IMG/VR virus record: IMGVR_UViG_3300036399_001217
Coordinates: 1 to 22,079 of that record
Origin: a virus
Length of the DNA stretch: 22,079 nucleotides
Direction: 5' to 3' (one strand)
Positions 3,001-20,298 of the stretch are shown here, one piece after another (within the stretch, counting starts at the first letter, position 1; every line of letters begins with the position of its first letter). A program made the translations under genes and the position numbers. The notes below the pieces were generated by a model. The model was given only the letters and a program-made list of their open reading frames with translations. It did no database searches and was not told the origin of the DNA.

Positions 3001-3258
3001 ACTGAAGAGGATTATTTGAAATTGAAAGAATTAGTTCCTGTAACTTATTCTTGGAAAAGTGATAATGAAAAAGAAAAACATTATGGCTTAATAGCTCAGC
3101 AAGTCGATAAGGTATTTCCAGAATTAACTCGTAAGAAATTATTTGGAGAATATATGACGATTAATTATATTGGATTAATACCTATATTAGTTGGTATGAT
3201 ACAAAAGCAAAATAGTAGAATATCAGAATTAGAAAGAAGATTAAATAGTTCCAAATAA
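1..3258 (+). CDS. Tail fibre / receptor-binding protein with C-terminal S74 chaperone (5'-partial)
   Basis: The frame is open from base 1, so the start lies upstream; the GTG at 127 is only an internal codon. The visible 1085 residues begin with three Ig-like beta repeats, each containing a Y-x-D segment (Tyr codons at 286, 607 and 952, so units of about 107-115 residues). A short collagen-like stretch (GSDGATGASGPG, residues ~341-352) and a small carbohydrate-binding-like segment with spaced W/Y residues (~354-405) follow. The middle carries IGGF/IGGW repeats typical of phage fibre shafts. Residues ~989-1085 form an intramolecular chaperone (peptidase S74): SDERLK places the catalytic Ser at 989 and Lys at 994, then YGLIAQQV, then a short coiled coil at the end. 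In this family the chaperone trimerises the fibre and cuts itself off before the Ser. The protein is therefore probably a trimeric, self-maturing host-recognition fibre. Confidence 0.85.
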   Translation, partial: TPVIAESQIAVNVSNENTTFPAYSGGNVFGGFLASSGSISVKVGSEDIAYASTIANNRFSASISSSTNVTGVLTNNNYSITALSADSGSLNLKVTYRDGRGSDSTFTKLVTYSKAKAGAPNVLVAVSPSAQSIAANSRTSGSATPASVTVTALEAGTSRFTSIGTPVYTNGLAGDVSSNTITFTSTASSIAGSTAQVTIPVNYTDSEGVTGTKNVVATVSKALASAPSTIVSIEKDGQTITRSKTGTYGTPSSFRINVLEGANSSSYDNTEPFASSTFRITNVTNGTLNATDLDKYATITPSTPSSTSGLVVSITGSYVDSEGSTTTFLKTHNVNVATDGSDGATGASGPGIVFRGPWSSTITYFDTDDSPGRRDAVLYSGTYYATKTNATTNLNKQPNIETTFWESLGTDSFFVAAKIIISENSFVQETLNVGTNSSGNANITLRGGTDKPYISIAQAVQEFGTNGIYLGITGSVGNAVVSFQSGSNYFKYNSSAAGTITDPVISVGGNIAATYITATSGAIGGFTIGSNTMTAGNLLLDAGNNRILIGSNNNLVAMSPTDGFYAGSATPTLANFRVKTDGIMTAVGASITGTITATGGNIGGWEIGDGRIFKSKIELKATSTQEYINVQGSTEAGSAGNYVRITPDSLSSLTLSGAGDGVASTAAGTSFTNLGTGTTLTTYYVGNSGASTTLSTDAGSVSNSTNNGAAYTGTVSVRYKLAATFSAQKPIMGEGSIFDRPTFPSAQAAYQASQDNLIGISPTINGAKLQWNQAVNGVLGYNDSEYFVLNAVEGTQVTVAIVYGDYNGTETISSTLYYNNTAIGTNTKTLTLTGANTEVSEIVSMAGSFTQVNGADFKVTSTRTNGGFNIYRIAITWELGKWFEPDFNKPFYSWFPAEDTGGFEFASETTAYVAPTALAAGSLSRFLEITPSGLQAVFNSAKNYFRVDYVGGNDPSTSNFNINSAGYWKHTGEMHSTGDIIGFTTAGASDERLKDTIENITEEDYLKLKELVPVTYSWKSDNEKEKHYGLIAQQVDKVFPELTRKKLFGEYMTINYIGLIPILVGMIQKQNSRISELERRLNSSK

Positions 3259-6200
3259 TGGCTTCAAACATTAAATTAAAAAATTTAGCCAGAAGTGCAG
3301 GTAAAACAGTTGATGCAAGTGGAAATCCAATAGCAGCAGCTTCCGGTTCTGATATGGCTAATATTTTTTTAACAGGCGATGTAAATCAAACTGTTTATAG
3401 ACATGTTCCTGATACCATTGGTTCTATTAGTGGAACAAGCCCAAGACCAATTGGAGACCAATATCAATTTTACGAATTCGATGGTGTGGTTCCTGGCATT
3501 GCTTTTACATCAATAAGTACTATATCAGATAATACCAATGTAAATATAGGTAGACAGATAACTTTTACATTTACTACAACTGGGGTGATATCTACAAATT
3601 ATAATGTTAAATTATATGGATATGATGCTAATCAACAAAATGAAGTTCTTTTAGACACTTATGGTGGGTATGGTGACAATGTAACAAATGAATCAAAAAC
3701 ATTTACGGGAACATTATTTCCAAATCAAATAAATTTCTTTAAATTATTATTAACAACCACAAGCGGACCTACTAGATTTGGAGAAGATATTACATCAATT
3801 TATATCTATCCAATAGATTTAACAATATCATCGGTAGTAACATCGCCAATATTTACAGGCGCAGGTACTCACAACTACACAACAGGTTCAGTTGGATTTA
3901 CTGTTAATGTTAATGGCGGAGTTCCTCCATATTATTATAATTTTAATGGAGCAGGATTTGGAGTTGCCGATGCAAATACTGCTACTTTTAATAATTCTAC
4001 AACTACTACGGATGATGCATATGATATTGTAGTTAAAGATTCACATACACCAACATTTGATACAGCTACAACTAGAGCAACAACATTCAGACCTCCAATT
4101 AGAGTTTCTTCTATTTCTACAAATTCTTCACCAGAACCATATGTTGATTATACAATAACACCAACTATTGCAAATAATACGGATGGCCTTCCATTAGTGT
4201 ATGCATGGGCTTTAGATGGTACTACACCTTCTACGAGTACCACATCGGCTCCTACTGTATTTTATACATCGTTAGGTGCAAAAACACACAGAGTTGATAT
4301 AACTAATTCTACGAATAGTAGTATACGACATAATAATACTACGGCAGTTACCGTAGCTATGATAGCACCTGGATTTACATCCGTTGAATATACTCCAAGT
4401 AGTGAAACTTTTTCTATATCATTAAATGTATCATCATTAGGAACTGCTAGAAGTGGTACTACAAGAAAGTTTGATATAGAATATAGAGTAAAAGATAGTG
4501 GAGGTACTTATGGTAGTTGGACATCTATAACATCAGATAGTACATCAACATCTACTTCTGTATCTATTAGTGGAAAAACAAATACTACACAAGTTGTACA
4601 AGCTAAAGCTAGAACACGAAGAACTAATGGTATAACTGAATTTATTTCTTCCTATGCTGAATCAACTGAAGTAACTATTCCACAAAAGGGAATAGTAAAT
4701 ATGAATAACCAAACCAGTTTATTAACAGGTGGAGATAGAAGTTTTGATGGTAGTGTTACAATTGGTGGAGTGGCTGATACGGGGTATAATACACCAACAA
4801 TAACAGCAGTTACTACGGATGGTACTGTTACCGCTAGTATTAGTAAACCATCTTCTAATATCGTTAGAGTAGTTGTTAATAATCCATGTACAAGTGTAAA
4901 TGATGGAACTGCTAGCCATGTTATATCTTTAAAAGATGGTAATGGTTATAATCTAACTAAATCTTTTACAACTCAATATAAGATAAATACTACATCAATA
5001 AATTTAACTACTACTTGGGGAAATGAAAGATATTATAATGGAGCCGCAAATGCAATCGCAAATAGCTTAGCACAATACTCATTTACATTAAATTCATTTG
5101 CTTATAAAGTTGGAGCTGGTTCATATAGTACACTAAATAGTGGAAATATGTCAAGTAGTTATTCACATACTTATACTGCACCCACTTCAGACCAGACTTG
5201 GACTTATAGAATTGTTGCTAGTGGGGGAACATATACGACATCGGATACAGCAGAAACTTCTTTGACCGTATATGGATATCCTGGACAATCTTATGGTTAT
5301 TCGGTTGCAGGTGTTCCATCATCTGGTACATTATCTCAAGTGGGTAGTGTTGTAGCAAGAGTAAGTAGAAGTAGTGGTAATTTCGCAAAAATATCAGTAG
5401 ATAGTTATTATGTAACTAGACCTACGGGAACAAATGTATCACCTGCTGGTAAATCGGAAGCAAGTATCACCGATTCAGCAACTAGCTTTGATTCAGCTAC
5501 ATTTTCATTATACGATTCGGCAGAATGTGGTAATAATGTAACGGGTATAGCAACTTTAATGGCTTATTTAAAATATGAAATCGATGCATCGAGATATTAT
5601 TTACATCAACTAATATCTTCAGGTGTATCTGTTTTAAATGAACCACCAAGCCTAACCTCTACATTAATTAGTGGTATTACAAGTGATTATGCAATTAGAG
5701 GAAATATTATAACACACGAGATTTCATATTCTTCATATGGTCCTCCAATAGCAGGTTATTACGATTTTAATGGTACATTTTATGATAATTCTGCGTACGC
5801 ATATCTTTCTCAAAATACAAATCCATCGAGTTTTTCAGGTATAACAGTCAATGATGAAAATTCACCAGAGTCACCTTCAATTGGATATTACCGAATAGCT
5901 ACCGATGGGACATTTTGTAGAAAGACTAGAAATTTATCATTTGAATACACACCAACTTCAGGCCAGGTAGGTACTAATATAACATTAAATTATTATGCGA
6001 GAGAATACCAAATAGATGAAATAGAAATTGATGAAGGTGATGGAAGAGGTGGAAGTCTTTTTACTTATTTATATGATTATTATTTTGATGGAAGTGAAGC
6101 AACTTTAACTTCTACAAAAACATATAGCGTTAGAGGAAGAAGATTAGGTACTAGTGGTAATTCTTGGAGTATTACAATTTATGTAAACAAAGGATATAGT

Positions 6201-8180
6201 GATTTACAATTTGGATTGGGTAGTGGTACATTAACAGGACCAGATGGAGCTATTGATTATTACAATGGAAATTTAGATGCTTTAACATATGTTTATCAAA
6301 GATATAATGGAAGTAGTTGGGTAGATATCGCTGGTTCATCTTACGATCCAGGTACATTCGGAACTACTTTAGTTAGAGTTAAATTTACAGATACATGGGG
6401 TAATACATTTGAATCAGCTCAGCAAAGTGCAACTACTTCGGATTTAGATTATACATTTAATGTAACTAATGAAGGCGGCCAGCCTACTGTATATGCTTAT
6501 GTTGGTTCTGGTCAATCTAGTGCACCTGTTATATTAACTCCAGGATTTACCAATAACAGAGCCATATGGTCAACTGGAACAAATATCAGTATTGATAATA
6601 TGACTGTAAATGATTATGTTATAGTATATGAACATAATGTATCAGGTATGGATGAGAGAGGAACATATTCTAATTTTCCAGGTGCATATACTACCATAGG
6701 TGTATCTGTTACAGCAGGTAGTACTCCCACATATGGAATGTTTAGAACATTTACTTATACACTTAGTACTAATCAACAAGTAATAGCAACTAGAGATTAT
6801 AGTGGAAGTCCTTATGCAAACGCAACTGGCACAGATATATTAGGTATTAAATCATTTCAAATGTTTAATTCTGGAGATAGTTCAGGAAACGCTACTTTAT
6901 TTGGTACAGGTGGTATTAGTGGTAACTTTAGATTGATGGCATTACTAAGAGCACCATCAGTATATGATGCAACTGCTACATATACATTACATGGACAAAA
7001 AGCTTCAAACAATACACAGCAAGGTACAGACTATTATGTAGTGTTAAAGACAAGGGGTGTTCAAAATGTTGTTAATATATTAACTCAAACGGGTTTGTGT
7101 GGAGGAATATATGTTGAATATAGAACAGGCCAGCTTGATACTGCCACTACTTTAGAAATACAAGAAAGTACGGATAATTCAACATTTACTAATAATGCTG
7201 TATATTCAAGCATCGCATCTAATACTACATATAATGCATTTATAACCGTAACAGGTAATGCTATACGCTATTATAGAGCAAGATTGTTAAATAGTAGTGG
7301 TGGTGTAATATCTACTGGAACAACTTATTCATACACAAACTATGCAGCTGGAGCAGCTGGAAATTATAGTTTTTTAAATATACCAGGAGTTTGTACTTCG
7401 TTTACATATAGAGTCGATAGACCTTCTGGTGGTAATTCTAATAATAATGCATATTTTGCTATTTCGTGGGCAACTGCTGATGAATATGGAACTGTTGGTG
7501 CAGAAATCACATCAGCTACTGGCAAAGCATATAATACGAATCATGTACAAAGTCTTTCTGGATTCCCATGCGATACACCAATACAAGTTACTATAACACC
7601 ATATTCTGCAACAGGATGCGATGGAACATCTGATACTAGTTTTGAAACTTCACATAAATCAGATGCGATAAATGAATTTTGTGGATGTGCGGGTGGTGGC
7701 GGATGTTTGGTATATGGTACTAAAGTTTTAATGTATGATGGTTCTTTAAAAAATGTTGAAGATTTGATTATAGGAGATATTGTTAAAAGTATAGCAATAA
7801 GTGGATTAAATCCTAATATAGAATTAAATTGGATAGATTGGTTAACAAATGATTTTCAATATGAAGATGGTTTATCAATAATAATGAGTATTGATGATAA
7901 TTCATTCTCTCAATATTATGTATTTAATAATTTATTGAAGGCAACATATGAGCATCCTATATTTATAAAAAGAGATAATGTGTGTATGTTTCAAATGGCT
8001 GAAAATTTGGTAATAGGTGATTATTTTTTTAATTCTAATAATGAATTTGAAATTATTTCATCAATTGATATAATAGATGAACCAATTCAAACAATTAATA
8101 TTAATATTGAAGAAAATGATGTCTACTTTGCAGATGGAATTTTAGTACATAACGCAGCACGACCAAAAGACGAAGCTTAA
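3258..8180 (+). CDS. Giant beta-sandwich fibre/adhesin with C-terminal Hint self-processing domain
   Basis: The start overlaps the previous stop (TAATG), suggesting translational coupling. The 1640-residue product is rich in Ser, Thr, Gly and Asn and consists of successive beta-sandwich-like segments. Residues ~370-475 resemble a fibronectin type III domain, and ~190-275 resemble a PKD/Ig-like repeat. No signal peptide is visible. Near the end a Cys-rich, Gly-rich linker (FCGCAGGGGC) leads into a Hint domain, residues 1483-1632: Cys1483 starts block A (CLVYGTKVLMYDGS), T1563-x-x-H1566 forms block B (TYEHP), and the domain closes with VYFADGILVHN. Only eight residues follow (AARPKDEA). The domain lacks a homing endonuclease. 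Hint domains activate the peptide bond before the Cys, leading to cleavage, splicing or attachment to another nucleophile. The +1 residue is Ala, so ordinary intein splicing is unlikely; a bacterial-intein-like (BIL) cleavage or ligation role fits better. The exact fibre role is inferred from position and composition. Confidence 0.8.
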   Translation: MASNIKLKNLARSAGKTVDASGNPIAAASGSDMANIFLTGDVNQTVYRHVPDTIGSISGTSPRPIGDQYQFYEFDGVVPGIAFTSISTISDNTNVNIGRQITFTFTTTGVISTNYNVKLYGYDANQQNEVLLDTYGGYGDNVTNESKTFTGTLFPNQINFFKLLLTTTSGPTRFGEDITSIYIYPIDLTISSVVTSPIFTGAGTHNYTTGSVGFTVNVNGGVPPYYYNFNGAGFGVADANTATFNNSTTTTDDAYDIVVKDSHTPTFDTATTRATTFRPPIRVSSISTNSSPEPYVDYTITPTIANNTDGLPLVYAWALDGTTPSTSTTSAPTVFYTSLGAKTHRVDITNSTNSSIRHNNTTAVTVAMIAPGFTSVEYTPSSETFSISLNVSSLGTARSGTTRKFDIEYRVKDSGGTYGSWTSITSDSTSTSTSVSISGKTNTTQVVQAKARTRRTNGITEFISSYAESTEVTIPQKGIVNMNNQTSLLTGGDRSFDGSVTIGGVADTGYNTPTITAVTTDGTVTASISKPSSNIVRVVVNNPCTSVNDGTASHVISLKDGNGYNLTKSFTTQYKINTTSINLTTTWGNERYYNGAANAIANSLAQYSFTLNSFAYKVGAGSYSTLNSGNMSSSYSHTYTAPTSDQTWTYRIVASGGTYTTSDTAETSLTVYGYPGQSYGYSVAGVPSSGTLSQVGSVVARVSRSSGNFAKISVDSYYVTRPTGTNVSPAGKSEASITDSATSFDSATFSLYDSAECGNNVTGIATLMAYLKYEIDASRYYLHQLISSGVSVLNEPPSLTSTLISGITSDYAIRGNIITHEISYSSYGPPIAGYYDFNGTFYDNSAYAYLSQNTNPSSFSGITVNDENSPESPSIGYYRIATDGTFCRKTRNLSFEYTPTSGQVGTNITLNYYAREYQIDEIEIDEGDGRGGSLFTYLYDYYFDGSEATLTSTKTYSVRGRRLGTSGNSWSITIYVNKGYSDLQFGLGSGTLTGPDGAIDYYNGNLDALTYVYQRYNGSSWVDIAGSSYDPGTFGTTLVRVKFTDTWGNTFESAQQSATTSDLDYTFNVTNEGGQPTVYAYVGSGQSSAPVILTPGFTNNRAIWSTGTNISIDNMTVNDYVIVYEHNVSGMDERGTYSNFPGAYTTIGVSVTAGSTPTYGMFRTFTYTLSTNQQVIATRDYSGSPYANATGTDILGIKSFQMFNSGDSSGNATLFGTGGISGNFRLMALLRAPSVYDATATYTLHGQKASNNTQQGTDYYVVLKTRGVQNVVNILTQTGLCGGIYVEYRTGQLDTATTLEIQESTDNSTFTNNAVYSSIASNTTYNAFITVTGNAIRYYRARLLNSSGGVISTGTTYSYTNYAAGAAGNYSFLNIPGVCTSFTYRVDRPSGGNSNNNAYFAISWATADEYGTVGAEITSATGKAYNTNHVQSLSGFPCDTPIQVTITPYSATGCDGTSDTSFETSHKSDAINEFCGCAGGGGCLVYGTKVLMYDGSLKNVEDLIIGDIVKSIAISGLNPNIELNWIDWLTNDFQYEDGLSIIMSIDDNSFSQYYVFNNLLKATYEHPIFIKRDNVCMFQMAENLVIGDYFFNSNNEFEIISSIDIIDEPIQTININIEENDVYFADGILVHNAARPKDEA

Positions 8181-8640: not shown

Positions 8641-10050
8641 ATGGTACATAAATTGGGAATATGCATTCCATATAGGGATAGAGAAACTCATTTAAAAACT
8701 CTAATTCCACATCTTACAAAGTTTCTTAATAAAAAAGATATTAAGCATTCTTTTTATATAGCACATCAAATTGATGATAAGTTATTTAATAGAGGGGCAA
8801 TGAAAAATATTGCCGCTAAACATGCATTTGAAGATGGGTGTGATTATGTAGCATTTCACGATGTAGATATGTTACCTGAAAATGAAAATTGTGATTATTC
8901 ATATCCTATCGATTATCCAACCCATATTGCAACAAAACTTTCTAAATACAAATACAAATTGAATTATGAGCAGTACTTTGGTGGGGTTGTATTATTTACA
9001 AAAGAGCAAGTAGAAAAAACCAATGGTTACTCAAATGATTATTGGGATTGGGGTATGGAAGATGATGATTTGTTTTGGAGATGTGTATATGAAGATATGA
9101 CAAATTGTGTAATATTTTCAAAATATACAAATAAAAAATATTTTGCTTTTAATGGGGATGGTTCATATATCCATATAAGGAAAGAATTGGGGTTACATTC
9201 GATTTTATCTAATTCTCACACTATTTCTATATTATGTAGTATAGATAATCAACCGGATAAATATAATCATTGGTTGGTAGGGGATGAAGCAAAATCATTT
9301 ATAGAATATCCTATTTTTAGAAGTAATAACAAAAATGGTTATGGAATTGGATTTAACAATTCTAGAGCAATATGTTCTTCTATTAGAAATTCCAATAATA
9401 ACTTTAATTATGGATGGATTAAGCGAAACTTTAATGAGTGGACTTGGGTAACCATATCAGTTGATACCAATTCTAATAATATATATTTTTATTGTAATAA
9501 CAAACTTATAAAAAATACAACCAATGGTACATTAGAAGAAAGTTATTCTAATTATGAAGGTACATTACAAAAAATAGATTCTGACTTTTATATAGGTAAA
9601 AATTCAGATAATATTACTGATATGATTGCTCCTTTTCTAAAAGGCAAAGTTGCAGAAATTAAAGTGTGGAATAAATTTTTTAAAAAAGAAGAAATTGAAG
9701 ATATTATATTAAAAAATAAAGAAACTCCATATTTTGAATTAACAAATGATAATAAAAAATTACATTACAACAATATAGTGGAAGAAAGTGCAACATTTGA
9801 TGTAATTAATAATATAATACCACATCGAAGAGAAGGGAGATTTCTCTCATTACCCCATACCGATGAAGGGTTTGTTGGTGGTAAATGGGCAAAAGGAGAA
9901 ACTACTGCACGAAATGAAAAAAGATTTTTCTTAGAAATGAAAGCAAAAAAACTAAATTACAAAGATGATGGTATAGCTCAAATTAAGTATGATTTGGTAT
10001 CAAAAGAGCAAATAGCAGACAATGCTTGGATGATAAATATAAAACTTTAA
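8641..10050 (+). CDS. GT7-family galactosyltransferase with inserted laminin-G-like domain
   Basis: Residues ~3-155 carry the beta-1,4-galactosyltransferase (GT7) signature: CIPYRDRETHL, FNRGAMKN (49-56), the metal-binding DVD (74-76), FGG (113-115) and WDWGMEDDD (135-143). Such enzymes transfer galactose or a related sugar from a UDP-sugar. The expected C-terminal part of the fold appears only at ~399-469: GRFLSLPHTDE, ARNEKR, then DDGIAQIKYDL and a final beta strand. Between them, residues ~165-375 look like a laminin-G/concanavalin-like jellyroll (GYGIGFNNSRA, NEWTWVTISVD, FYIGKNSD, KGKVAEIKVWN). The jellyroll therefore seems to be inserted inside the enzyme. The gene sits directly after the fibre genes, so it may glycosylate the fibres or alter host surface glycans, with the jellyroll binding the acceptor. 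Donor and acceptor cannot be read from the sequence. Confidence 0.85.
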   Translation: MVHKLGICIPYRDRETHLKTLIPHLTKFLNKKDIKHSFYIAHQIDDKLFNRGAMKNIAAKHAFEDGCDYVAFHDVDMLPENENCDYSYPIDYPTHIATKLSKYKYKLNYEQYFGGVVLFTKEQVEKTNGYSNDYWDWGMEDDDLFWRCVYEDMTNCVIFSKYTNKKYFAFNGDGSYIHIRKELGLHSILSNSHTISILCSIDNQPDKYNHWLVGDEAKSFIEYPIFRSNNKNGYGIGFNNSRAICSSIRNSNNNFNYGWIKRNFNEWTWVTISVDTNSNNIYFYCNNKLIKNTTNGTLEESYSNYEGTLQKIDSDFYIGKNSDNITDMIAPFLKGKVAEIKVWNKFFKKEEIEDIILKNKETPYFELTNDNKKLHYNNIVEESATFDVINNIIPHRREGRFLSLPHTDEGFVGGKWAKGETTARNEKRFFLEMKAKKLNYKDDGIAQIKYDLVSKEQIADNAWMINIKL

Positions 10051-10136: not shown

Positions 10137-13100
10137 ATGAATATAAAAGAAATAGATAAACCTGAAATTAAAAAAGTAGTAGTAGTTTACGCTGGTAGAT
10201 TTCAACCCTTCCATAAGGGACACTATGCTACTTATCAGAAATTAGTTTCTAAGTTTGGCGCAAATAATGTTTACATTGGAACTTCTAATGATACATCAGG
10301 TCCTAAATCCCCATTTGATTTTAATGAAAAGAAAACTATAATGAATAAAATGTTTGGTATTTCTCCAAACAAAATAGTTCAAGTTCGTAATCCATATGCA
10401 CCTAAAGAAGTTTTAAGTGGTATGGATGGAAAGACTACTGCATATGTTGCGGCAGTTGGTGAAAAAGATGCAACTAGATTAGCAGGTAAATATTTTAAAC
10501 CATACAAAGGTAAAGCTGGATATGGTTATGATGAAATTGGTTATGTATATCCGGTGCCGGCAGAAGATAACGCTATAAGTGGAACTGATGTTCGTAATTG
10601 GTTAAGTAAAGGCGATGATAAAGCTAAACAAAAAGGATTTACGAAAGCATATCCAAAATTTGATAAAGATATATTCAATATGATAACAGGTAAATTAAAT
10701 GAAGAACTATACAAAGGTTACCCTTCAAAAGAACAAGTAAAAGATATAGAAAGGAAAAATAAAGAATTTAGAAATTCAGCTGATTCAACTTCAGATGATG
10801 AATATCTTTATGACCCAATAGCTGAAATATTAGGTAGAGTTGCAGCAGAAGATATATTTGAAGAATTTGTTAAATCATATTTTAAAGAAGAAACTGAAGC
10901 TGAAAAAATGGGATTAACCCATTTAGGTGGTGGTTATTATGGAAAAGAAGGACAACCTGCATCACATAAATCAGATAATGGTAAGATTCGTACATTAACT
11001 CCTCAAGAGGTTGATGCTGTTAAGAAAAAATCAATGGCTAAAGGTCCTTCAGATGCTCCCGTTAATGAACCCAAGCCATCTCAGCCAGGTCAACCTGTTA
11101 ACAAAGGGGCAACGGCTCAAGGTAAAGTTGATAAAGCAAAAGAAGAACCTACTGATAAAAAAACAGGTGGCGAAAAGCCAGGAGAACAAGCTCCTCCACC
11201 TGAACAAAAATTAAGTGGAGCAGAATTGAAATCCTCCGCAGAAATGAGTGATAAAGATAAAGGCGAACAAAAAGTTAAAGAAACCTTAGATAAGGCTAAA
11301 AAAGATTTATCAAAAGAAGATAATGAATCAATTGATAAAGTAAATAACCCTCAATCACAGGAAAGAAAGGGAGCTATTGGTGTACTAAAAAAAGCAGCAT
11401 CATATATAGGACATGGCATTATGCATACATTGGAGCATAATAAAGAAATGATGGTTGGAACTGGTAGAGCTATAAAATCATTAGCAACTACCGGAAAAAT
11501 GGGAAGTATTAAAGATAAAGATGGTAATAATGTTCATTGGGATAGATACACCGAAGTAGGTGAAAAAGATTTTTTTGGAAATGAGCAACCAAAGATGAAA
11601 GAAGTTCCTGTTTATAAAACAGATAGTCATGGACATGCTATTAAAGATAAAGATGGGAACAAAATACAAGATACAAATTTATTAGGAAAATTAAAAACAA
11701 AAAAAGAACCTGTATATAGAGAAGGATTATCAGCAGAAGAAAAAGAATTAGCAGAAAAGTCTTGGAAAGAGAGTCAAAGACAAAAAAATGGTGTTAAAAC
11801 TCTTGCAAAAACCACTGCATTAATTATGGGTTCAATTGCAGTTACGGGTGGTTTAATGGGTGGTGGAGCAGCTGCTATGAAAGGAGCTGGTGCTAGTGGT
11901 ATCTTAAAAGGTGCCGGAGCAAAAATAGCAGCTAAATTTGGCGGAGGCCATTTGGGTTCATATGTAATGAAAGATATTATAAAACACTCTGCGGCAGAAG
12001 CCTTAGGAGCTAATGCAATTCAAGCATCTGGCGTAGGTATTGCATTAGGAGCTGCTGGTATATTTGAAAATAAAGATGGCGAAGAGGGGTTTGATACTAA
12101 AAAATTCGTACCAAACTTTATGGAAAAAACATTAGAAATAATGCAAAACTATAAACTTTCAGATGAGCAATTAATAGAAACACTTAATCAGTATAAAAAA
12201 GAAGGAACTAAAAATCAATCTATGGCTAACGCTTCAGATTTGATGAAAGAAGATATTTCAGAATCAAAGCAACAATCTATTCAACATTTTGTAGAATTTG
12301 CAACTAAACGATTAAAATTAAAAGAAACACCAAATATTACATTAGTTGGTGGTAGAGAATTTGCTGAAGTAAAAACATCATTGGGTGGATATAATCCAGA
12401 TGATAAATCAATATATGTAGCAACCGAAGGTAGATTAACTGCTGATATTTTAAGAACACTTGCACATGAAATGGCTCATAGAAAGCAAGATGAGATGGGA
12501 TTAGTTACAAATGCAGAAACCGATGGCGCAGATGGTTCTCCAATAGAAAATAAAGCACATGCAGTAGCTGGAATCCTAATGAGAGAGTATGGTAGAATCA
12601 ACAAACAAATCTATAATGAAGATATTAATGTAGATGTTGATAAGGGTGATACTGTTTTAATGGGTAAGTTTAAAAATAAAAAAACTACCGTTAAAGATAT
12701 TGGAACTGATGACCATGGGATGCCAACAATTAATGGTAAGAAAGCAACTACATTCAGAATTCCAAGAGGAGAAGAAGAAAAATCAAATCCACAATCAGTA
12801 TTTAATGAAGTAGGCCCAAATGATTGGCACTTCAAAGCAATTATGAAAATGTGGGATACTGCTAATTCATTTAGTAGAAAAAAGATTGGAGTAGTGGTAT
12901 GTAATAATCCTAAAGCTGATAGAAATGATGTAGCTAGAACATTAAGAAACTACGGATATAAAGAAGTAACCCATGTTACCGATAAGTTGGGATTGGAAGA
13001 AAAAAAAAACCTAAATGAATTAACACAAGGTTTATTCGCAGGTAAGGTTAAAATAGGTGGACAACCGGTTGAAATTGAAGTAGAATTATTAGGAGCAGAT

Positions 13101-14453
13101 AATAAAACAAAAGAATTCATAACAAAAATAATTCACATTGATAAGAAATATCAAAGTAAATTACCTATTGGTTCGGAATTTAAAATACCAGCAAGAATAT
13201 TCAGAATGCCAGGCGGTGGTTGGCATAAAATCAAATCATCTGCATTTAAAGAATCCCTAAACGAAGGTGGAGCATACGGACACATGTCACATCCATTTGA
13301 TGATATGGATTTAACTTTTGGTGATTTGAAAAAGATTATCAAAGGAGCATTGACAGGTAATTTAGAATTGACAAGAGAAAAAACCGATGGACAAGCCCTA
13401 GCAATAAGTTGGAAGAATGGTAGATTAATTGCCGCAAGAAACAAATCACATTTACAAAACGCCGGAGTAGGGGCAATGGGTATTGAAGATGTAGCATCAA
13501 AGTTTGGTGGAAGAGGTGGATTAACCGATGCTTACAACTTTGCTATGAGAGATTTAACTGCGGCAATTAGTGGATTATCTGAAGCACAAAGAAAAAAGAT
13601 ATTTGATGAAGGCAAGTGTTTTATGAATTTGGAAGTAATATGGCCAACTTCGGTAAATGTAATTCCTTATGGACAGGCTTTATTAGTATTCCATAACACA
13701 ACTTGTTATGATGAAAAAGGTTCTGCGATTGGTGCAAATCAGGGAGCAGCAACTATGTTAGCAGGAATGATTAAGCAAGTGAACGCTGATGTTCAATCAA
13801 AGTATACAATACAAGGTCCACCTGTAACAGAACTACCTAAAAAAGAGGAGTTAAGTTCAAAACAAACAAAGTACCTTACTCAATTGCAAAAGATACAATT
13901 TCAGTTCCAATTATCCGATAAAGATGGTGTATCTGAATATCATCAAGCTTGGTGGGAAGATTTTGTAAATAAATCAAAAGTTAAATTACAAAAATTAGAA
14001 AAGGAAGCATTAGTAAGAAGATGGGCATTTGGTGATAAATCATTCCGTTTAAATACTATTGCTGATAAAGATGCTCAAAGTTGGGCAATCGAAAATGATA
14101 AAGTAAATGTAGCTAAACAACAAAAAGATAATGTTAGACAATTTGAAGAAATATTTTTGGGTGTTGGGGCAGATGTTCTTTCATTTATGGGTTCAGTATT
14201 AACTGTAAATCCAGATGCAGCTGTTCGTAATATGAAAGATAGATTAAAATCAACTGCTGAAAAAGTAAGAGGTAGTGGTGATGTATCTAAAATAGCTAAA
14301 TTAAAAATGGAATTAAGTAGATTAGCTAGTATTGGTGGTAAAGATAAAATAGTACCAAACGAAGGTATTGTATTTGTTTATAAAGGTAATACATATAAAC
14401 TAACAGGTACATTCGCACCACTAAATCAGATATTAGGTATATTTTACGAATAA
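10137..14453 (+). CDS. Multi-enzyme polyprotein: HxGH nucleotidyltransferase, zincin and ligase-like domain
   Basis: The 1438-residue product has several recognisable parts. Residues ~11-190 are a cytidylyltransferase/NMN-adenylyltransferase-like Rossmann domain, with GRFQPFHKGH (20-29) and ISGTDVR (147-153). A short phage module (THLGGGYYGKEG, 261-272) precedes a charged Pro/Lys/Glu linker (~300-410). A Gly/Ala-rich hydrophobic stretch (~555-645) could insert in or cross a membrane. Residues ~710-830 are a zincin with HEMAH (777-781) and a possible third ligand in IENKAHA (803-809). A domain of unknown function (~835-1035) follows. The C-terminus (~1045-1438) resembles an ATP-dependent ligase/nucleotidyltransferase: KTDG (1082-1085, motif I), LEVI (~1165), EGIVF (1409-1413, motif IV) and Lys1421 (motif V). 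The late-region position suggests a virion or injected protein, much as T4 Alt is injected. Substrates are unknown. The ligase call is motif-based and less certain than the first two. Confidence 0.8.
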   Translation: MNIKEIDKPEIKKVVVVYAGRFQPFHKGHYATYQKLVSKFGANNVYIGTSNDTSGPKSPFDFNEKKTIMNKMFGISPNKIVQVRNPYAPKEVLSGMDGKTTAYVAAVGEKDATRLAGKYFKPYKGKAGYGYDEIGYVYPVPAEDNAISGTDVRNWLSKGDDKAKQKGFTKAYPKFDKDIFNMITGKLNEELYKGYPSKEQVKDIERKNKEFRNSADSTSDDEYLYDPIAEILGRVAAEDIFEEFVKSYFKEETEAEKMGLTHLGGGYYGKEGQPASHKSDNGKIRTLTPQEVDAVKKKSMAKGPSDAPVNEPKPSQPGQPVNKGATAQGKVDKAKEEPTDKKTGGEKPGEQAPPPEQKLSGAELKSSAEMSDKDKGEQKVKETLDKAKKDLSKEDNESIDKVNNPQSQERKGAIGVLKKAASYIGHGIMHTLEHNKEMMVGTGRAIKSLATTGKMGSIKDKDGNNVHWDRYTEVGEKDFFGNEQPKMKEVPVYKTDSHGHAIKDKDGNKIQDTNLLGKLKTKKEPVYREGLSAEEKELAEKSWKESQRQKNGVKTLAKTTALIMGSIAVTGGLMGGGAAAMKGAGASGILKGAGAKIAAKFGGGHLGSYVMKDIIKHSAAEALGANAIQASGVGIALGAAGIFENKDGEEGFDTKKFVPNFMEKTLEIMQNYKLSDEQLIETLNQYKKEGTKNQSMANASDLMKEDISESKQQSIQHFVEFATKRLKLKETPNITLVGGREFAEVKTSLGGYNPDDKSIYVATEGRLTADILRTLAHEMAHRKQDEMGLVTNAETDGADGSPIENKAHAVAGILMREYGRINKQIYNEDINVDVDKGDTVLMGKFKNKKTTVKDIGTDDHGMPTINGKKATTFRIPRGEEEKSNPQSVFNEVGPNDWHFKAIMKMWDTANSFSRKKIGVVVCNNPKADRNDVARTLRNYGYKEVTHVTDKLGLEEKKNLNELTQGLFAGKVKIGGQPVEIEVELLGADNKTKEFITKIIHIDKKYQSKLPIGSEFKIPARIFRMPGGGWHKIKSSAFKESLNEGGAYGHMSHPFDDMDLTFGDLKKIIKGALTGNLELTREKTDGQALAISWKNGRLIAARNKSHLQNAGVGAMGIEDVASKFGGRGGLTDAYNFAMRDLTAAISGLSEAQRKKIFDEGKCFMNLEVIWPTSVNVIPYGQALLVFHNTTCYDEKGSAIGANQGAATMLAGMIKQVNADVQSKYTIQGPPVTELPKKEELSSKQTKYLTQLQKIQFQFQLSDKDGVSEYHQAWWEDFVNKSKVKLQKLEKEALVRRWAFGDKSFRLNTIADKDAQSWAIENDKVNVAKQQKDNVRQFEEIFLGVGADVLSFMGSVLTVNPDAAVRNMKDRLKSTAEKVRGSGDVSKIAKLKMELSRLASIGGKDKIVPNEGIVFVYKGNTYKLTGTFAPLNQILGIFYE

Positions 14454-15826: not shown

Positions 15827-17434
15827 ATGATTCAAAATCAGCCAAAAAAGAATCTAAAAGATATCATTGCTGAAGAATATCGTAAGTCTGCAAACGACCC
15901 GATATACTTTATGAAAAAATATTGTGTCATCCAACATCCAACAAGAGGTAAGATACCATTTCATTTGTATCAATTTCAGGAAAATTGTTTAGATGATTTC
16001 AAAGATAATAGGTTCAATATAATTTTAAAATCCCGCCAGTTAGGTTTATCAACTCTATCGGCGGGCTTTATTCTTTGGAAGATGTTATTTAATCAGGACT
16101 ATAATGCGTTGGTTATTGCAACTAAAGTAACTGTTGCAAAAAACTTAGTAGAAAAAGTAAGGGTTATGCACGATTTACTTCCTATTTGGTTAAGAGATGG
16201 TGGTAGTAGTTCAGTAGAAGATAATAAACTATCACTTAAATTAAAAAATGGTTCACAAGTAAAAGCAATCGCATCTTCTCCAGATGCAGGTCGTTCTGAA
16301 GCCTTATCACTATTAGTAGTAGATGAGGCGGCATTCATTAGAGATATTGATGAAATTTGGTTATCCGCACAATCAACCCTATCAACGGGTGGTTCGGCAA
16401 TCGTATTATCTACACCAAATGGTATTGGTAATTGGTTTCATAAAATGTGGGTAGATGGAGAAAGTGGTGCAAATGGTTTTAATTGTATTAACTTACATTG
16501 GACTGTACACCCTGAAAGAAATCAACAATGGAGAGATGAACAAACAAGAATTTTAGGAATTAAAGGAGCAGCACAGGAATGTGATTGTGACTTTGTTGGG
16601 TCTGGTGATACTGTAATCGACCCGGCATTATTGACTTGGTATAAAGATACCTATGTTATGGAGCCAATAGAAAAAGCTGGGTTTGATGGGAATCTTTGGA
16701 AATGGGAATATCCAAATTACAATAAGTCATATATGGTTGTAGCCGATGTGGCGCGAGGTGATGGAGCCGATTATTCTACTGCCCAAGTATTAGATATTGA
16801 AGATTGTACCCAAGTAGCTGAATATAGAGGGAGATTGGATACAAAGGATTTTGGAAACTTCTTAGTAAGTTTAGCAACTGATTATAATAATGCATTACTT
16901 ATTATAGAAAATGCCAATGTAGGTTGGTCAGCAATTCAACAAGTAATTAATAGAGCATATCCTAATTTATTTTATATGAGTAAGGATTTACAATATATTG
17001 ATACTGAAAAACAAATGAGTAATAGGTATTACAGAGATGAAAGAAATATGGTTGCTGGGTTTTCTACAACATCAAAAACCCGTCCTCTTATCATATCTAC
17101 ATTGGATACCTATATGAGAGAAAAAGATATTCTCATTCGTTCTAGCAGATTGATTGATGAAATGTTTACTTTTATTTGGAGTTCTGGTAGAGCTGAAGCT
17201 ATGAAAAGTTACAATGATGACTTGATTATGGCATTGGGAATTGGACTATGGGTTCGTAACACAGCGCTTAGATTGAAGCAAGAAGGGATTGATTTAACCA
17301 AAGCAATGTTGAATTCATCTACGGTTAAATCATATGAAGAGGGGGTTTATACTAGCAATTGGCAAAAGGATAATCCATATGAAATGAAAATAGGTAATGG
17401 GGAAGTAGAAAATTTGAAGTGGTTGCTTGGATAA
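15827..17434 (+). CDS. Terminase large subunit, T4 gp17-like packaging motor
   Basis: The 535-residue protein is the ATPase-nuclease that drives genome packaging into the prohead and cuts the concatemer. The N-terminal motif KIPFHLYQFQ (42-51) is typical of gp17-like enzymes. The ATPase domain has a deviant Walker A, SRQLGLST (69-76), Walker B LLVVDEA (162-168, with Asp166 and Glu167) and a coupling motif VLSTPNG (193-199). The C-terminal RNase H-like nuclease shows acidic residues at Asp307 (VVADVARGDGADYS), Glu361 (LLIIENANVGW) and Asp464/465 (YNDDLIMALG). T4 gp17 is about 610 residues, so this version is somewhat shorter but all motifs are present. It lies upstream of the portal, its docking partner, with one gene between. 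Confidence 0.96.
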   Translation: MIQNQPKKNLKDIIAEEYRKSANDPIYFMKKYCVIQHPTRGKIPFHLYQFQENCLDDFKDNRFNIILKSRQLGLSTLSAGFILWKMLFNQDYNALVIATKVTVAKNLVEKVRVMHDLLPIWLRDGGSSSVEDNKLSLKLKNGSQVKAIASSPDAGRSEALSLLVVDEAAFIRDIDEIWLSAQSTLSTGGSAIVLSTPNGIGNWFHKMWVDGESGANGFNCINLHWTVHPERNQQWRDEQTRILGIKGAAQECDCDFVGSGDTVIDPALLTWYKDTYVMEPIEKAGFDGNLWKWEYPNYNKSYMVVADVARGDGADYSTAQVLDIEDCTQVAEYRGRLDTKDFGNFLVSLATDYNNALLIIENANVGWSAIQQVINRAYPNLFYMSKDLQYIDTEKQMSNRYYRDERNMVAGFSTTSKTRPLIISTLDTYMREKDILIRSSRLIDEMFTFIWSSGRAEAMKSYNDDLIMALGIGLWVRNTALRLKQEGIDLTKAMLNSSTVKSYEEGVYTSNWQKDNPYEMKIGNGEVENLKWLLG

Positions 17435-17463: not shown

Positions 17464-18504
17464 ATGAACGAAGATTTAGATAAATGGTTTAAAGAAAAGT
17501 GGGTAAACATCGGCAAAAAAGTTGATGGTAAACATCCACCATGTGGAACTTCGGGAGAAAAGAAAGGTTATGCTAAATGTGTTCCTGCGGCAAAAGCAGC
17601 TGGGATGAGTAAAAAAGAAAAAGAAAGTGCAACTCGTAGAAAGAGAGATGCACAAAATGATGCAGGAAGAGGTGGTAAGGATAGTAAGGGACAGGGTAAA
17701 ACGCCCATATATGTTTCTACTAAACCTAAAAATGAAGAGTGGAGTGATAAATATAAAAGTAGTATAGATTGCAATAATCCAAAAGGTTTCTCTCAAAAAG
17801 CACATTGTGCAGGAAAGAAAAAAAATGAAGATATGAATATAGAAGAAAAACTAAATTTATTTTTAGAAAAGAATTGTCCAACTGACCCGGCAAAGTGGTC
17901 GGCATCTAAATCCGCAGCAAAATCTAAATTTGATGTTTATCCATCTGCATATGCAAATGGATGGGCTGCAAAGAACTATAAATCAAAAGGTGGTGGTTGG
18001 AAAACTTGCAATGAGGGAGAAGCTAACGCATTATGTGAAGATTGTTGGGATGGATATAAGCAAGTAGGAATGAAGGATAAAGGTGGAAAGCAAGTTCCAA
18101 ATTGTGTTCCCGTAAGTGAAGATATCGATTCAGATGATGATGTAAACTATGGTTTAGTTGAACCAGAAGAATATGATGTTGAAGATGAGGATATGGAAGA
18201 TTTCATTTCTTTTATGAGAGCATATTCTAAAGATTTAAGTGAAGCAAATTGTAATTGTGTTTATGAAGCAGAATATCAGGGTAGAAATGTTCAGTTAGGT
18301 AAACCAATGCAAGGTGATGTTAAAAAGTTCAAAGTTTATGTAAAAAATCCAGCAGGTAATGTTGTTAAAGTAAACTTTGGTCAAAAAGGAATGAAAATCA
18401 GAAAATCAAATCCTGCAGCTAGAAAATCATTTAGAGCAAGAATGAATTGTGATAATCCAGGACCAAGACATAAAGCAAATTATTGGTCTTGCAGAAAGTG
18501 GTAA
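17464..18504 (+). CDS. Mosaic of short Cys-containing viral modules, between terminase and portal
   Basis: The 346-residue protein appears to be a string of short modules that I recall as recurring in T4-like phages, and partly in large eukaryotic viruses (DUF5872- and DUF6321-like; the names are from memory). In order: KWVNIGKK...GKHPPCGTS...YAKCVPAAKA (~12-85); SIDCNNPKGFSQKAHCAGKK (~100-119); CPTDPAKWSASKSAAKSKFD with GWAAKNYKSKGGGWK (~138-180); CEDCWDGYKQVGMKDKGGKQ with VPNCVP (~191-216); an acidic stretch (~219-248); and a C-terminal basic module (~285-346) with KFKVYVKNPAGNV, KSFRARMNCDNPGP and YWSCRKW. The repeated Cys pairs could bind zinc. Position suggests a packaging or capsid role, but no enzymatic motif is visible. 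Confidence 0.8.
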   Translation: MNEDLDKWFKEKWVNIGKKVDGKHPPCGTSGEKKGYAKCVPAAKAAGMSKKEKESATRRKRDAQNDAGRGGKDSKGQGKTPIYVSTKPKNEEWSDKYKSSIDCNNPKGFSQKAHCAGKKKNEDMNIEEKLNLFLEKNCPTDPAKWSASKSAAKSKFDVYPSAYANGWAAKNYKSKGGGWKTCNEGEANALCEDCWDGYKQVGMKDKGGKQVPNCVPVSEDIDSDDDVNYGLVEPEEYDVEDEDMEDFISFMRAYSKDLSEANCNCVYEAEYQGRNVQLGKPMQGDVKKFKVYVKNPAGNVVKVNFGQKGMKIRKSNPAARKSFRARMNCDNPGPRHKANYWSCRKW

Positions 18505-18558: not shown

Positions 18559-20298
18559 ATGGCAGATAAATCAATATTCGGTAGGTTACAAAAATTATTT
18601 TCAACAAACACCATTGTTCGTAAAACAAAAAAAGGTGTTAGAGTCATTGATACGGATGAATACCAATCAATGTCAACTAACCTTGTTGACCGTTTTATGA
18701 AAATGAAAACGCCGGCATATAGTACTGGAATGCTTGAATCTGCAATGTCTTATCAACAAGTAAGAGCAGATTTATTCAGAGATTATGATTCAATGGATAA
18801 CGACCCTATCTTATCTTCTGCTTTAAATATTTTTGCTGATGAATCAACTCCAAAGAATGAACATGGTGATGTATTAAGAATCAATTGTTCAAATGAAAAT
18901 ATTAAAAGTATTCTTCATAACTTATTCTATGATATAATGAACATAGAATTTAACTTATGGCCTTGGGGTAGAAACTTAGTAAAATATGGTGATTTCTTTT
19001 TACAATTAGAAATTGCTCCAGAATTAGGTATTATAAATATAGTACCAATGTCAGTATATGAAGTTAGTAGAGTTGAAGGATTTGATATGGAAAATCCACA
19101 AAGAGTAAAATTTGTTTACTCACCATATACTAACCCATATGGAAGTACACAAGCTTCAAACAAAAAAGAATACGAAAATTACGAAGTAGCTCATTTCCGT
19201 TTATATTCGGATGCAAACTTCTTACCATATGGTAAATCAATGTTAGAAGGAGCTAGAAGAGTTTGGAAACAATTAACTCTTATGGAAGATGCGATGTTAA
19301 TCCATCGTATTATGAGAGCACCTGAAAAAAGAATATTTAAAATTGATGTAGGTAATATTCCACCAAATGAGGTAGATAATTACATGCAAAAAATTATAAA
19401 CGCAAGTAAAAAGACTCCATTTGTTGATGCAGCAACTGGCGATTACAATTTGAAATATAATATGCAAAACCTTATTGAAGATTATTATATGCCAGTGCGT
19501 GGTAATGATAATGGTACTTCAATTGATACTTTAAAAGGCTTAGAATATAATATGGTGGATGACCTTAACTATTTAAAAAATAAGTTAATGGCAGCATTAC
19601 ATATTCCAAAAGCATATTTAGGATACGAAGAAGATATTAGTGGTAAGGCAACTCTTGCATCACAAGATGTTCGTTTTGCAAAAACAATAGAAAGAATTCA
19701 AAAAGTATTGGTATCTGAATTAACTAAGATAGCAATTGTACACTTATATGCACAAGGATTAGATGATGCAAATGATTTAGATTTTTCATTAGAATTAACA
19801 ATTCCATCTAAAATTTATGAGCAAGAAAAGGTTGAATTATATACTTCAAAGGTAGCATTGATTCAACAAATGCAACAAACTAAAATGTTTTCTAAAAAAT
19901 GGATGTATGATACAGTAATGGATATGACTCCTGAAGAGCAGGATGAATTAACATTAGATGTGTTAGATGATACTAAACAACAATTCCGTTTAACTTCTAT
20001 TGAAACACAGGGTGTTGACCCTGCTAAACCAACCGGTGTAGAAGGAGAACCAACAAATGTTGAAGAAGAGTTGGATAGATTGAACACCGAATTGGAAACC
20101 GAAGGAGATGTTGGTAGACCAAAAGACCCGGTTAGATATGGTAAAGATGACCATCCATTAGGAAGAGACCCATTCGGCCAAAAATCTAATAAACAAAAAG
20201 AAGGTTCTGTCAAATATAAACCAAGGGAGAATTACAAAGAAATTTTTAAGGATATGATGGGAAATAAAAAGACTATTTTGACAGAAGATTCTAAATAA
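18559..20298 (+). CDS. Portal vertex protein, T4 gp20-like
   Basis: The 579-residue protein is recognised as a T4-type portal, the dodecameric ring at one capsid vertex through which DNA enters and leaves and to which the terminase docks. Characteristic segments are YDSMDNDPILSSALNIFADE (76-95), VKYGDFFLQLE (141-151), YGKSMLEGARRVWKQL (224-239), APEKRIFKIDVGNIPP (254-269), YYMPVRGNDNGTSIDTLKG (309-327), KLMAALHIPKAYLGYE (342-357) and DVRFAKTIERIQKVL (370-384). The last ~110 residues are acidic and Pro/Gly-containing, probably a flexible tail. It is slightly longer than T4 gp20 (about 524 residues). Confidence 0.95.
   Translation: MADKSIFGRLQKLFSTNTIVRKTKKGVRVIDTDEYQSMSTNLVDRFMKMKTPAYSTGMLESAMSYQQVRADLFRDYDSMDNDPILSSALNIFADESTPKNEHGDVLRINCSNENIKSILHNLFYDIMNIEFNLWPWGRNLVKYGDFFLQLEIAPELGIINIVPMSVYEVSRVEGFDMENPQRVKFVYSPYTNPYGSTQASNKKEYENYEVAHFRLYSDANFLPYGKSMLEGARRVWKQLTLMEDAMLIHRIMRAPEKRIFKIDVGNIPPNEVDNYMQKIINASKKTPFVDAATGDYNLKYNMQNLIEDYYMPVRGNDNGTSIDTLKGLEYNMVDDLNYLKNKLMAALHIPKAYLGYEEDISGKATLASQDVRFAKTIERIQKVLVSELTKIAIVHLYAQGLDDANDLDFSLELTIPSKIYEQEKVELYTSKVALIQQMQQTKMFSKKWMYDTVMDMTPEEQDELTLDVLDDTKQQFRLTSIETQGVDPAKPTGVEGEPTNVEEELDRLNTELETEGDVGRPKDPVRYGKDDHPLGRDPFGQKSNKQKEGSVKYKPRENYKEIFKDMMGNKKTILTEDSK

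What the first reader, a model, noticed from the sequence alone, without database searches (positions are those of the whole stretch)
10137..14453. Nucleotidyltransferase, zincin and ligase-like domain in one late-gene polyprotein
One 1438-residue chain joins an HxGH adenylyl/cytidylyltransferase domain, a Gly/Ala-rich hydrophobic segment, a metalloprotease-like HEMAH domain and a KTDG/EGIVF ligase-like domain, with flexible linkers between. Late-region placement suggests packaging in the virion. Inference: an injected effector that cuts itself apart by its own zincin after entry and then acts on host NAD, RNA or DNA ends.
Basis: partly seen in the sequence, partly recalled or inferred. Interest (0 to 1): 0.7.

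Follow-up and report, generated by a model that had tools for sequence, protein, structure and literature searches.

The report
Modular cargo polyprotein inside phage heads
A large, uncultured relative of phage T4 (and many cousins) encodes one long protein whose two ends are always the same two enzymes while the middle is a reshuffled set of small domains, and the joints carry the cutting signal of the phage's own head protease, so it looks like a bundle of internal head proteins made as one chain, trimmed inside the capsid and probably injected into the host.

Summary
In detail: 10137-14453 is one intact 1438-aa ORF with an HxGH nucleotidyltransferase (NT) at the N-terminus, a Gly/Ala-rich hydrophobic segment, an HExxH zincin and a C-terminal domain (LIG) whose AlphaFold model matches RNA ligases (NgrRnl, T4 Rnl1, T4 Rnl2). 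About 85 complete homologues show what it is. NT is almost always first and LIG always last, but the middle ranges from 21 to about 1430 aa and is a shuffled deck of small modules; 31 of 133 co-occurring module pairs occur in both orders. Module joints, and the N-terminus, carry the T4 gp21 prohead-protease signature (L/I-x-E|): 79/82 LIG junctions, 35/36 junctions of another module (relaxed P3), 60/64 N-termini. A gp21-family protease lies about 8 kb downstream in related records (found in 9/10). Some modules also occur as free-standing proteins with a T4-like capsid-targeting N-terminus. Published virion proteomes contain distant NT homologues. Best reading: a head-packaged, modular internal-protein polyprotein cut by the prohead protease, then ejected. 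Actual cleavage and enzyme substrates remain untested.

The parts
10137..14453 (+). Polyprotein ORF, 1438 aa
10137..10151 (+). N-terminal propeptide MNIKE| (aa 1-5), short capsid-targeting-like leader ending in I-x-E (predicted)
   Evidence: T4 IPII/IPIII MKTYQEFIAE|A for comparison
10152..10703 (+). NT: HIGH-superfamily (NMNAT/NadM-like) nucleotidyltransferase, aa 6-189, ends KLNE|
10704..12251 (+). Variable region aa 190-705: low-complexity linkers, GYYGK motif (about aa 255-310), conserved modules, hydrophobic Gly/Ala-rich segment (about aa 556-645), ends LMKE|
12252..12620 (+). Zincin module aa 706-828, HEMAH 777-781, ends IYNE|
12621..12809 (+). Small module M4 aa 829-891 (DVDKGDTVLMGKFKNKK), the most widespread middle module, ends VFNE|
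12810..13019 (+). Small module M5 aa 892-961, ends NLNE|
13020..13265 (+). Small module M6 aa 962-1043, ends SLNE|
13266..14450 (+). LIG: RNA-ligase-like covalent nucleotidyltransferase domain aa 1044-1438, motif I EKTDG 1081-1085, motif IV EGIVF 1409-1413, about 200-aa helical insert before motif IV
15827..17434 (+). Terminase large subunit (head-gene context)
18559..20298 (+). T4-type portal protein (head-gene context)

Best explanation
The gene makes a precursor of several internal head proteins. A short N-terminal leader targets the chain into the prohead core. The phage's gp21-type prohead protease then cuts after hydrophobic-x-Glu at the leader and at the joints between modules, releasing the NT enzyme, a variable set of small cargo modules (here including a zincin) and the RNA-ligase-like enzyme, which stay in the head and are ejected with the DNA. 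The two constant ends are inferred to act early in infection, NT on a nucleotide substrate such as NMN plus ATP, LIG on nucleic-acid (probably RNA) ends; the middle cargo varies by module shuffling, as expected for host-specific takeover or counter-defence tools. Shown here: architecture, shuffling, conserved catalytic motifs, RNA-ligase fold of the predicted LIG model, joint motif statistics, presence of the protease, gp23-type capsid and portal. Inferred: actual cleavage, packaging of this particular protein, ejection, and enzyme substrates.
For: Fixed ends and reshuffled middle in 67 non-redundant homologues. LIG junction: P1 Glu 79/82, P3 Leu/Ile 82/82, P2 free; M4 junction: P1 Glu 35/36 with hydrophobic P3 in 31. 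With the NT and LIG joints excluded, 54.7% of homology borders have a shared Glu in the first 9 columns versus 13.8% of windows inside modules. N-termini: [LI]xE within 22 aa in 60/64, versus 38% of other ORFs and 16% of internal 22-mers; many read like MKGLAKFLVETILGE|AA, compare T4 MKTYQEFIAE|A. Free-standing LIG MKFLKSYEEFLNENLILE|GGSYGH (L003) and free-standing zincin MNYKQFLRE|STEK (Synechococcus phage B23). The same module starts after xNE| in polyproteins and in other head-cluster proteins. S77 prohead protease in 9/10 records, gp23 in 7/7, whose N-terminal region has a matching LLDE|A. gp21 cuts after L/I-x-E, and IPs and Alt are packaged, trimmed and ejected (PMC9026906). A cyanophage-core citidylyltransferase (T4-GC190) was found in S-SM1 virions (PMC3037559) and a cytidylyltransferase in S-CREM2 virions (PMC10665884); the S-PM2 T4-GC190 protein matches the NT profile.
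Against: No proteomics on this phage or on close relatives. Some joints have P3 Tyr, Phe or Met (IYNE, VFNE, LMKE) rather than Leu/Ile. L/I-x-E also occurs inside domains (e.g. E730, E1149), so the motif alone does not prove cleavage. The general motif test on fuzzy breakpoints gives only 2-fold enrichment, and related Glu motifs reach about 1.7-fold. Pairwise border counts are not independent. The window ends before the place where the protease gene is expected. Virion-detected cytidylyltransferases are distant, and no fusion to LIG is known for them.
Confidence: 0.72

Rival explanations
1. Intact polyvalent effector: the chain is packaged and injected uncut (like the N4 virion RNA polymerase), and the joint glutamates are merely charged linkers.
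For: Polyvalent proteins combine disparate domains with zincins in late-gene contexts and some are packaged unprocessed (PMC5512222). Linkers here are rich in charged residues.
Against: The Leu/Ile-x-Glu pattern with a free middle position at 79/82 LIG joints, the same start motif in free-standing and head-cluster proteins and the co-encoded protease are not expected from neutral linkers.
Confidence: 0.13
2. Self-cleaving effector: the embedded zincin cuts the chain apart after injection.
For: HExxH zincin with fold matches to zincins and fully conserved HE[ML][AV]H; zincin autoprocessing is proposed for polyvalent proteins.
Against: 37 of 67 non-redundant homologues have no zincin but carry the same joints; its position changes (e.g. 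L022, L049); the joint motif matches a different, co-encoded protease.
Confidence: 0.05
3. Core/scaffold protein: the modules mainly serve prohead core assembly (like T4 gp22, gp67), are degraded by the protease, and the enzyme ends are the only retained parts.
For: Head-gene position; T4 core proteins are cut at the same motif into fragments mostly lost from the head; some modules also occur in other head-cluster proteins.
Against: Middle content varies from 21 to about 1430 aa and includes an enzyme module, unlike an essential scaffold; a likely gp22-like scaffold is separately encoded just upstream of gp23 (ORF beginning MANSKLLKEAIADAKAV; assignment by position).
Confidence: 0.07
4. Late cytoplasmic enzyme: an NAD and RNA repair fusion protein acting in the infected cell, not in virions.
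For: Both end domains are enzymes with intact motifs; phages encode NAD-synthesis and RNA-repair enzymes (PMC9503650).
Against: Capsid-targeting-like N-termini, head-gene position and virion detection of NT homologues.
Confidence: 0.03

Closest known systems
T4 internal proteins IPI-IPIII and Alt (capsid-targeted, gp21-processed, ejected)
   Same: Short N-terminal leader ending in L/I-x-E, gp21-family protease, T4-type head genes, inferred ejection.
   Different: T4 makes each as a separate gene with its own leader; here many are apparently fused in one precursor with internal cut sites, and the end domains are an NT and an RNA-ligase-like enzyme.
Polyvalent proteins (Iyer et al. 2017, PMC5512222)
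   Same: One long late-gene chain combining unrelated enzyme domains, often with a zincin, expected to be injected.
   Different: Fixed NT and LIG ends with a reshuffled middle; processing signature of the prohead protease rather than the embedded zincin; no HIGH nucleotidyltransferase or RNA-ligase domain of polyvalent proteins was found in the passages searched.
RNA ligases of the covalent nucleotidyltransferase superfamily (NgrRnl, T4 Rnl1, T4 Rnl2)
   Same: KxDG motif I, EGxV motif IV, best structural matches (Z 8.6, 7.8 and 7.5).
   Different: No detectable sequence match; about 200-aa helical insert between motifs IIIa and IV; conserved GGAYGHMxHPF entry motif; motif V reads KLT.
NMNAT / NadM nucleotidyltransferases; cyanophage T4-GC190 cytidylyltransferase
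   Same: GRFQPFHKGH and ISGTxVR motifs; the S-PM2 homologue matches the NT profile.
   Different: Far below curated NMNAT cut-offs; 6 of 67 homologues have GxHH in place of HxGH; S-PM2 T4-GC190 is not fused to LIG.
Microcystis phage Mel-JY01 cytidylyltransferase-like protein (WWT39297.1, 639 aa)
   Same: NT plus LIG in one chain, IAE|GG joint, prohead protease downstream.
   Different: No middle modules (21 aa between the domains).

Membership tests
T4-type capsid-targeted internal head proteins | Short N-terminal propeptide ending in L/I-x-E | tested here: met
   60 of 64 N-termini within 22 aa, versus 38% of other ORFs; window MNIKE|. Sequence signature only, cleavage not shown
T4-type capsid-targeted internal head proteins | Encoded with a gp21-family prohead protease | tested here: met
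   PF03420 above cut-off in 9 of 10 related records; not seen in the window itself, which ends too early
T4-type capsid-targeted internal head proteins | Present in virions, cleaved, ejected | not testable with these tools
   Only distant NT homologues reported in virions
Polyvalent proteins | Several domains of disparate activity in one chain in a late-gene/packaging context | tested here: met
   NT, zincin and LIG next to terminase and portal
Polyvalent proteins | Made of the domains catalogued for the class | tested here: inconclusive
   Zincin fits; no statement of HIGH NTase or RNA-ligase domains found by term search of the paper; supplementary domain lists not read
Covalent nucleotidyltransferase (RNA ligase) superfamily | Motif I KxDG and motif IV EGxV | tested here: met
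   67 of 67 non-redundant homologues
Covalent nucleotidyltransferase (RNA ligase) superfamily | Adenylyltransferase fold | tested here: met
   Model pLDDT 83; the leading VIA-align rows are all RNA ligases, best NgrRnl Z 8.6, rmsd 4.4 over 186 aa; middling Z, backed by motifs
Covalent nucleotidyltransferase (RNA ligase) superfamily | Motif V K-x-K | tested here: inconclusive
   K1421-L-T-G conserved, second Lys absent
NMNAT/NadM | HxGH and second (SGTxxR-like) motif | tested here: met
   FHKGH and ISGTDVR
NMNAT/NadM | Curated family score | tested here: not met
   30.4 vs 127 bits (NF002243) and 27.6 vs 181.2 (TIGR01527); filed only as HIGH-superfamily
Zincin metallopeptidases | HExxH and zincin fold | tested here: met
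   HEMAH conserved; fold matches SprT-like 6mdw Z 8.8, IrrE Z 7.3
Zincin metallopeptidases | Peptidase activity | not testable with these tools
   YbeY, a metallo-endoribonuclease, matches about equally well (Z 8.6)

The most novel reading that the evidence does not exclude
A widespread T4-like lineage carries its internal head proteins as one modular polyprotein: one targeting leader, constant enzyme ends (nucleotidyltransferase first, RNA-ligase-like last) and an exchangeable deck of cargo modules, each bounded by prohead-protease sites, so that new virion effectors are gained by recombining modules at cleavage joints.
Probability: 0.65. Interest if true: 0.75.

Novelty: new variant of a known kind. 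Interest (0 to 1): 0.64.

Why it matters
If true, phages use a virus-type polyprotein strategy for their injected proteins, processed by the capsid protease rather than by an embedded one. It gives a simple rule (hydrophobic-x-Glu joints) for predicting which uncharacterised domains in environmental T4-like phages are virion cargo, points to many new candidate early host-takeover or counter-defence proteins, and adds an RNA-ligase-like family with no sequence match in PDB or Pfam.

Tried and rejected
Sigma-70 and T4 late-promoter-like scans gave no more sites than shuffles. phmmer and profile search of LIG against PDB sequences found nothing credible; fold comparison was needed. Breakpoint test with a loose motif definition gave modest enrichment, so joint-anchored tests were used; the regular expressions for the M6 start (mis-registered) and for ZN and M5 (catching unrelated sites) are not relied on. 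Single-linkage clustering of modules merged almost everything; Louvain clusters are approximate and some mix modules. PADLOC gave no defence-protein match. The RegB resemblance of one module in relatives is below cut-off (18.6 vs 27 bits) and is not claimed. LIG was not found by profile in S-PM2, T4 or B23, although BFVD lists an S-PM2 protein with a weak structural match. The model of aa 400-1040 is poor overall (pLDDT 66); only its zincin part is used.
Full report
What is there. The ORF at 10137-14453 is intact and encodes 1438 aa. Its N-terminal domain is a HIGH-superfamily nucleotidyltransferase: phrog_395 E 1.3e-16, Pfam CTP_transf_like above cut-off when scanned alone, nearest solved sequences NadM 2qjt and the archaeal protein MJ0541, but far below curated NMNAT cut-offs. 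Its C-terminal 395 aa (LIG) match no Pfam or PDB sequence credibly. An AlphaFold model of LIG (pLDDT 83) matches RNA ligases: Naegleria NgrRnl Z 8.6, trypanosome REL1 8.1, T4 Rnl1 7.8, T4 Rnl2 7.5; Foldseek's top rows are mostly RNA ligases too, though none is below E 0.001. Motif I EKxDG and motif IV EGxVF are present in 67 of 67 non-redundant homologues. A helical insert of roughly 200 aa lies between motifs IIIa and IV. The zincin has HEMAH and a downstream ENxAH; HE[ML][AV]H is present in 30 of 30 carriers, with fold matches to SprT-like, YbeY, IrrE and ArdC structures.

Relatives. IMG/VR scans gave 79 and 80 loci, and a genome-contig scan gave seven short contigs binned as bacterial or archaeal, probably mis-binned phage (inference). 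Named phage records with LIG are only Microcystis phage Mel-JY01 and two huge uncultured phages. In the 67 non-redundant complete proteins LIG is last in all and NT is first in all but three with N-terminal extensions (L161, L163, L002), while the middle runs from 21 aa (Mel-JY01) to about 1430 aa. The middle is reshuffled: for example a ~243-aa module sits right after NT in L065, L070 and L079 but near LIG in L055, L038 and L039 at 60-65% identity, and the zincin lies before the small modules M4 and M5 in the window but after them in L022 and L049. By approximate clustering, 31 of 133 co-occurring module pairs occur in both orders.

The joints. T4 gp21 cuts after L/I-x-E (PMC9026906). Directly before LIG, 79 of 82 distinct contexts have Glu at P1 and all 82 have Leu or Ile at P3, while P2 is variable; before module M4, 35 of 36 have Glu, with a hydrophobic P3 in 31. 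Leaving out the NT and LIG joints, 54.7% of homology borders share a Glu within the first nine columns, versus 13.8% of windows inside modules (pairs are not independent). N-termini have L/I-x-E within 22 residues in 60 of 64, versus 38% for other ORFs of the same loci. In one group they read like MKGLAKFLVETILGE|AA; T4 IPII and IPIII read MKTYQEFIAE|A. A free-standing LIG begins MKFLKSYEEFLNENLILE|GGSYGH and a free-standing zincin MNYKQFLRE|STEK. Modules shared with other proteins of the head cluster also start after xNE|, e.g. KKNINE|STPSEIIKDLDK in a polyprotein and SVVNE|ETPSEIIKDLDK in another ORF. In the window's own protein the strict motif is met at E5, E189, E709, E961 and E1043, and a relaxed form at E705, E828 and E891.

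The machinery. A Peptidase_S77 (gp21) gene is above cut-off in 9 of 10 related records, about 8 kb downstream of the polyprotein in the T4-like contigs measured, and gp23-type capsid proteins in 7 of 7, whose N-terminal region contains LLDE|AT or LISE|AN. The window ends before the predicted protease position. Gene order in the window is tail-fibre genes, glycosyltransferase, polyprotein, two small ORFs, terminase, a Cys-rich ORF, portal.

Virion evidence from papers. A cyanophage-core citidylyltransferase, T4-GC190, was detected in S-SM1 virions (PMC3037559); [quoted passage not shown] The T4-GC190 protein of S-PM2 matches the NT profile. These are distant, and the S-PM2 protein is not fused to LIG.

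Interpretation. The most economical reading is a fused set of internal head proteins: one leader, prohead-protease joints, constant enzyme ends and a variable cargo deck. The zincin cannot be the general processing enzyme, because 37 of 67 relatives lack it. What NT and LIG do in the host is inference: nucleotide-cofactor synthesis and RNA end repair are plausible given the known roles of such enzymes in phage-host conflicts (PMC9503650). In 6 of 67 relatives the first His of HxGH is replaced, so NT catalysis may not be universal, whereas the LIG motifs never vary. In three loci (L046, L098, L108) the LIG coding region appears to be interrupted by an intein at the catalytic motif I, a typical place for inteins (own knowledge).

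Novelty. Internal proteins cut by gp21 and multi-domain injected polyvalent proteins are both known. In the SPN3US head, 13 of the 14 mapped prohead-protease sites remove N-terminal propeptides and one a C-terminal propeptide (PMC10052503). I found no description of a reshuffled multi-effector polyprotein with prohead-protease joints, but searches covered only the open library. Hence: new variant of a known kind.

Noticed in passing
L046, L098, L108 (LIG coding region): LIG is split by what looks like an intein at motif I: the downstream ORF begins ...DGFSCYYANDILVHN|TDGQALAISW.
   Followed up: partly
window 3258-8180: 1640-aa ORF with a C-terminal Hint-like domain (PT-HINT E 3.4e-5) ending ...DVYFADGILVHNAARPKDEA, in the tail-fibre region; no PHROG match.
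   Followed up: no
window 8641-10050: Galactosyltransferase-type GT7 domains fused to a laminin-G/concanavalin-like domain, next to the polyprotein.
   Followed up: no
window 17464-18504: Cys-rich 346-aa ORF between terminase and portal with DUF5872-like repeats; its counterparts in relatives vary strongly in length (158-388 aa), perhaps another modular head-cluster protein.
   Followed up: partly
L183 about 2462-5269: The terminase gene of this relative is split by inserted sequence resembling an intein or homing-endonuclease element.
   Followed up: no
L082, L081, L083, L001, L161, L163: NT first catalytic His replaced (GRFxPxGxHH instead of HxGH) in these members.
   Followed up: partly
L070, L061, L071, L064: DUF5661 module within the polyprotein middle (L070, L061, L071, L064) and a weak RegB-like module (L070, L061, also L039).
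   Followed up: partly
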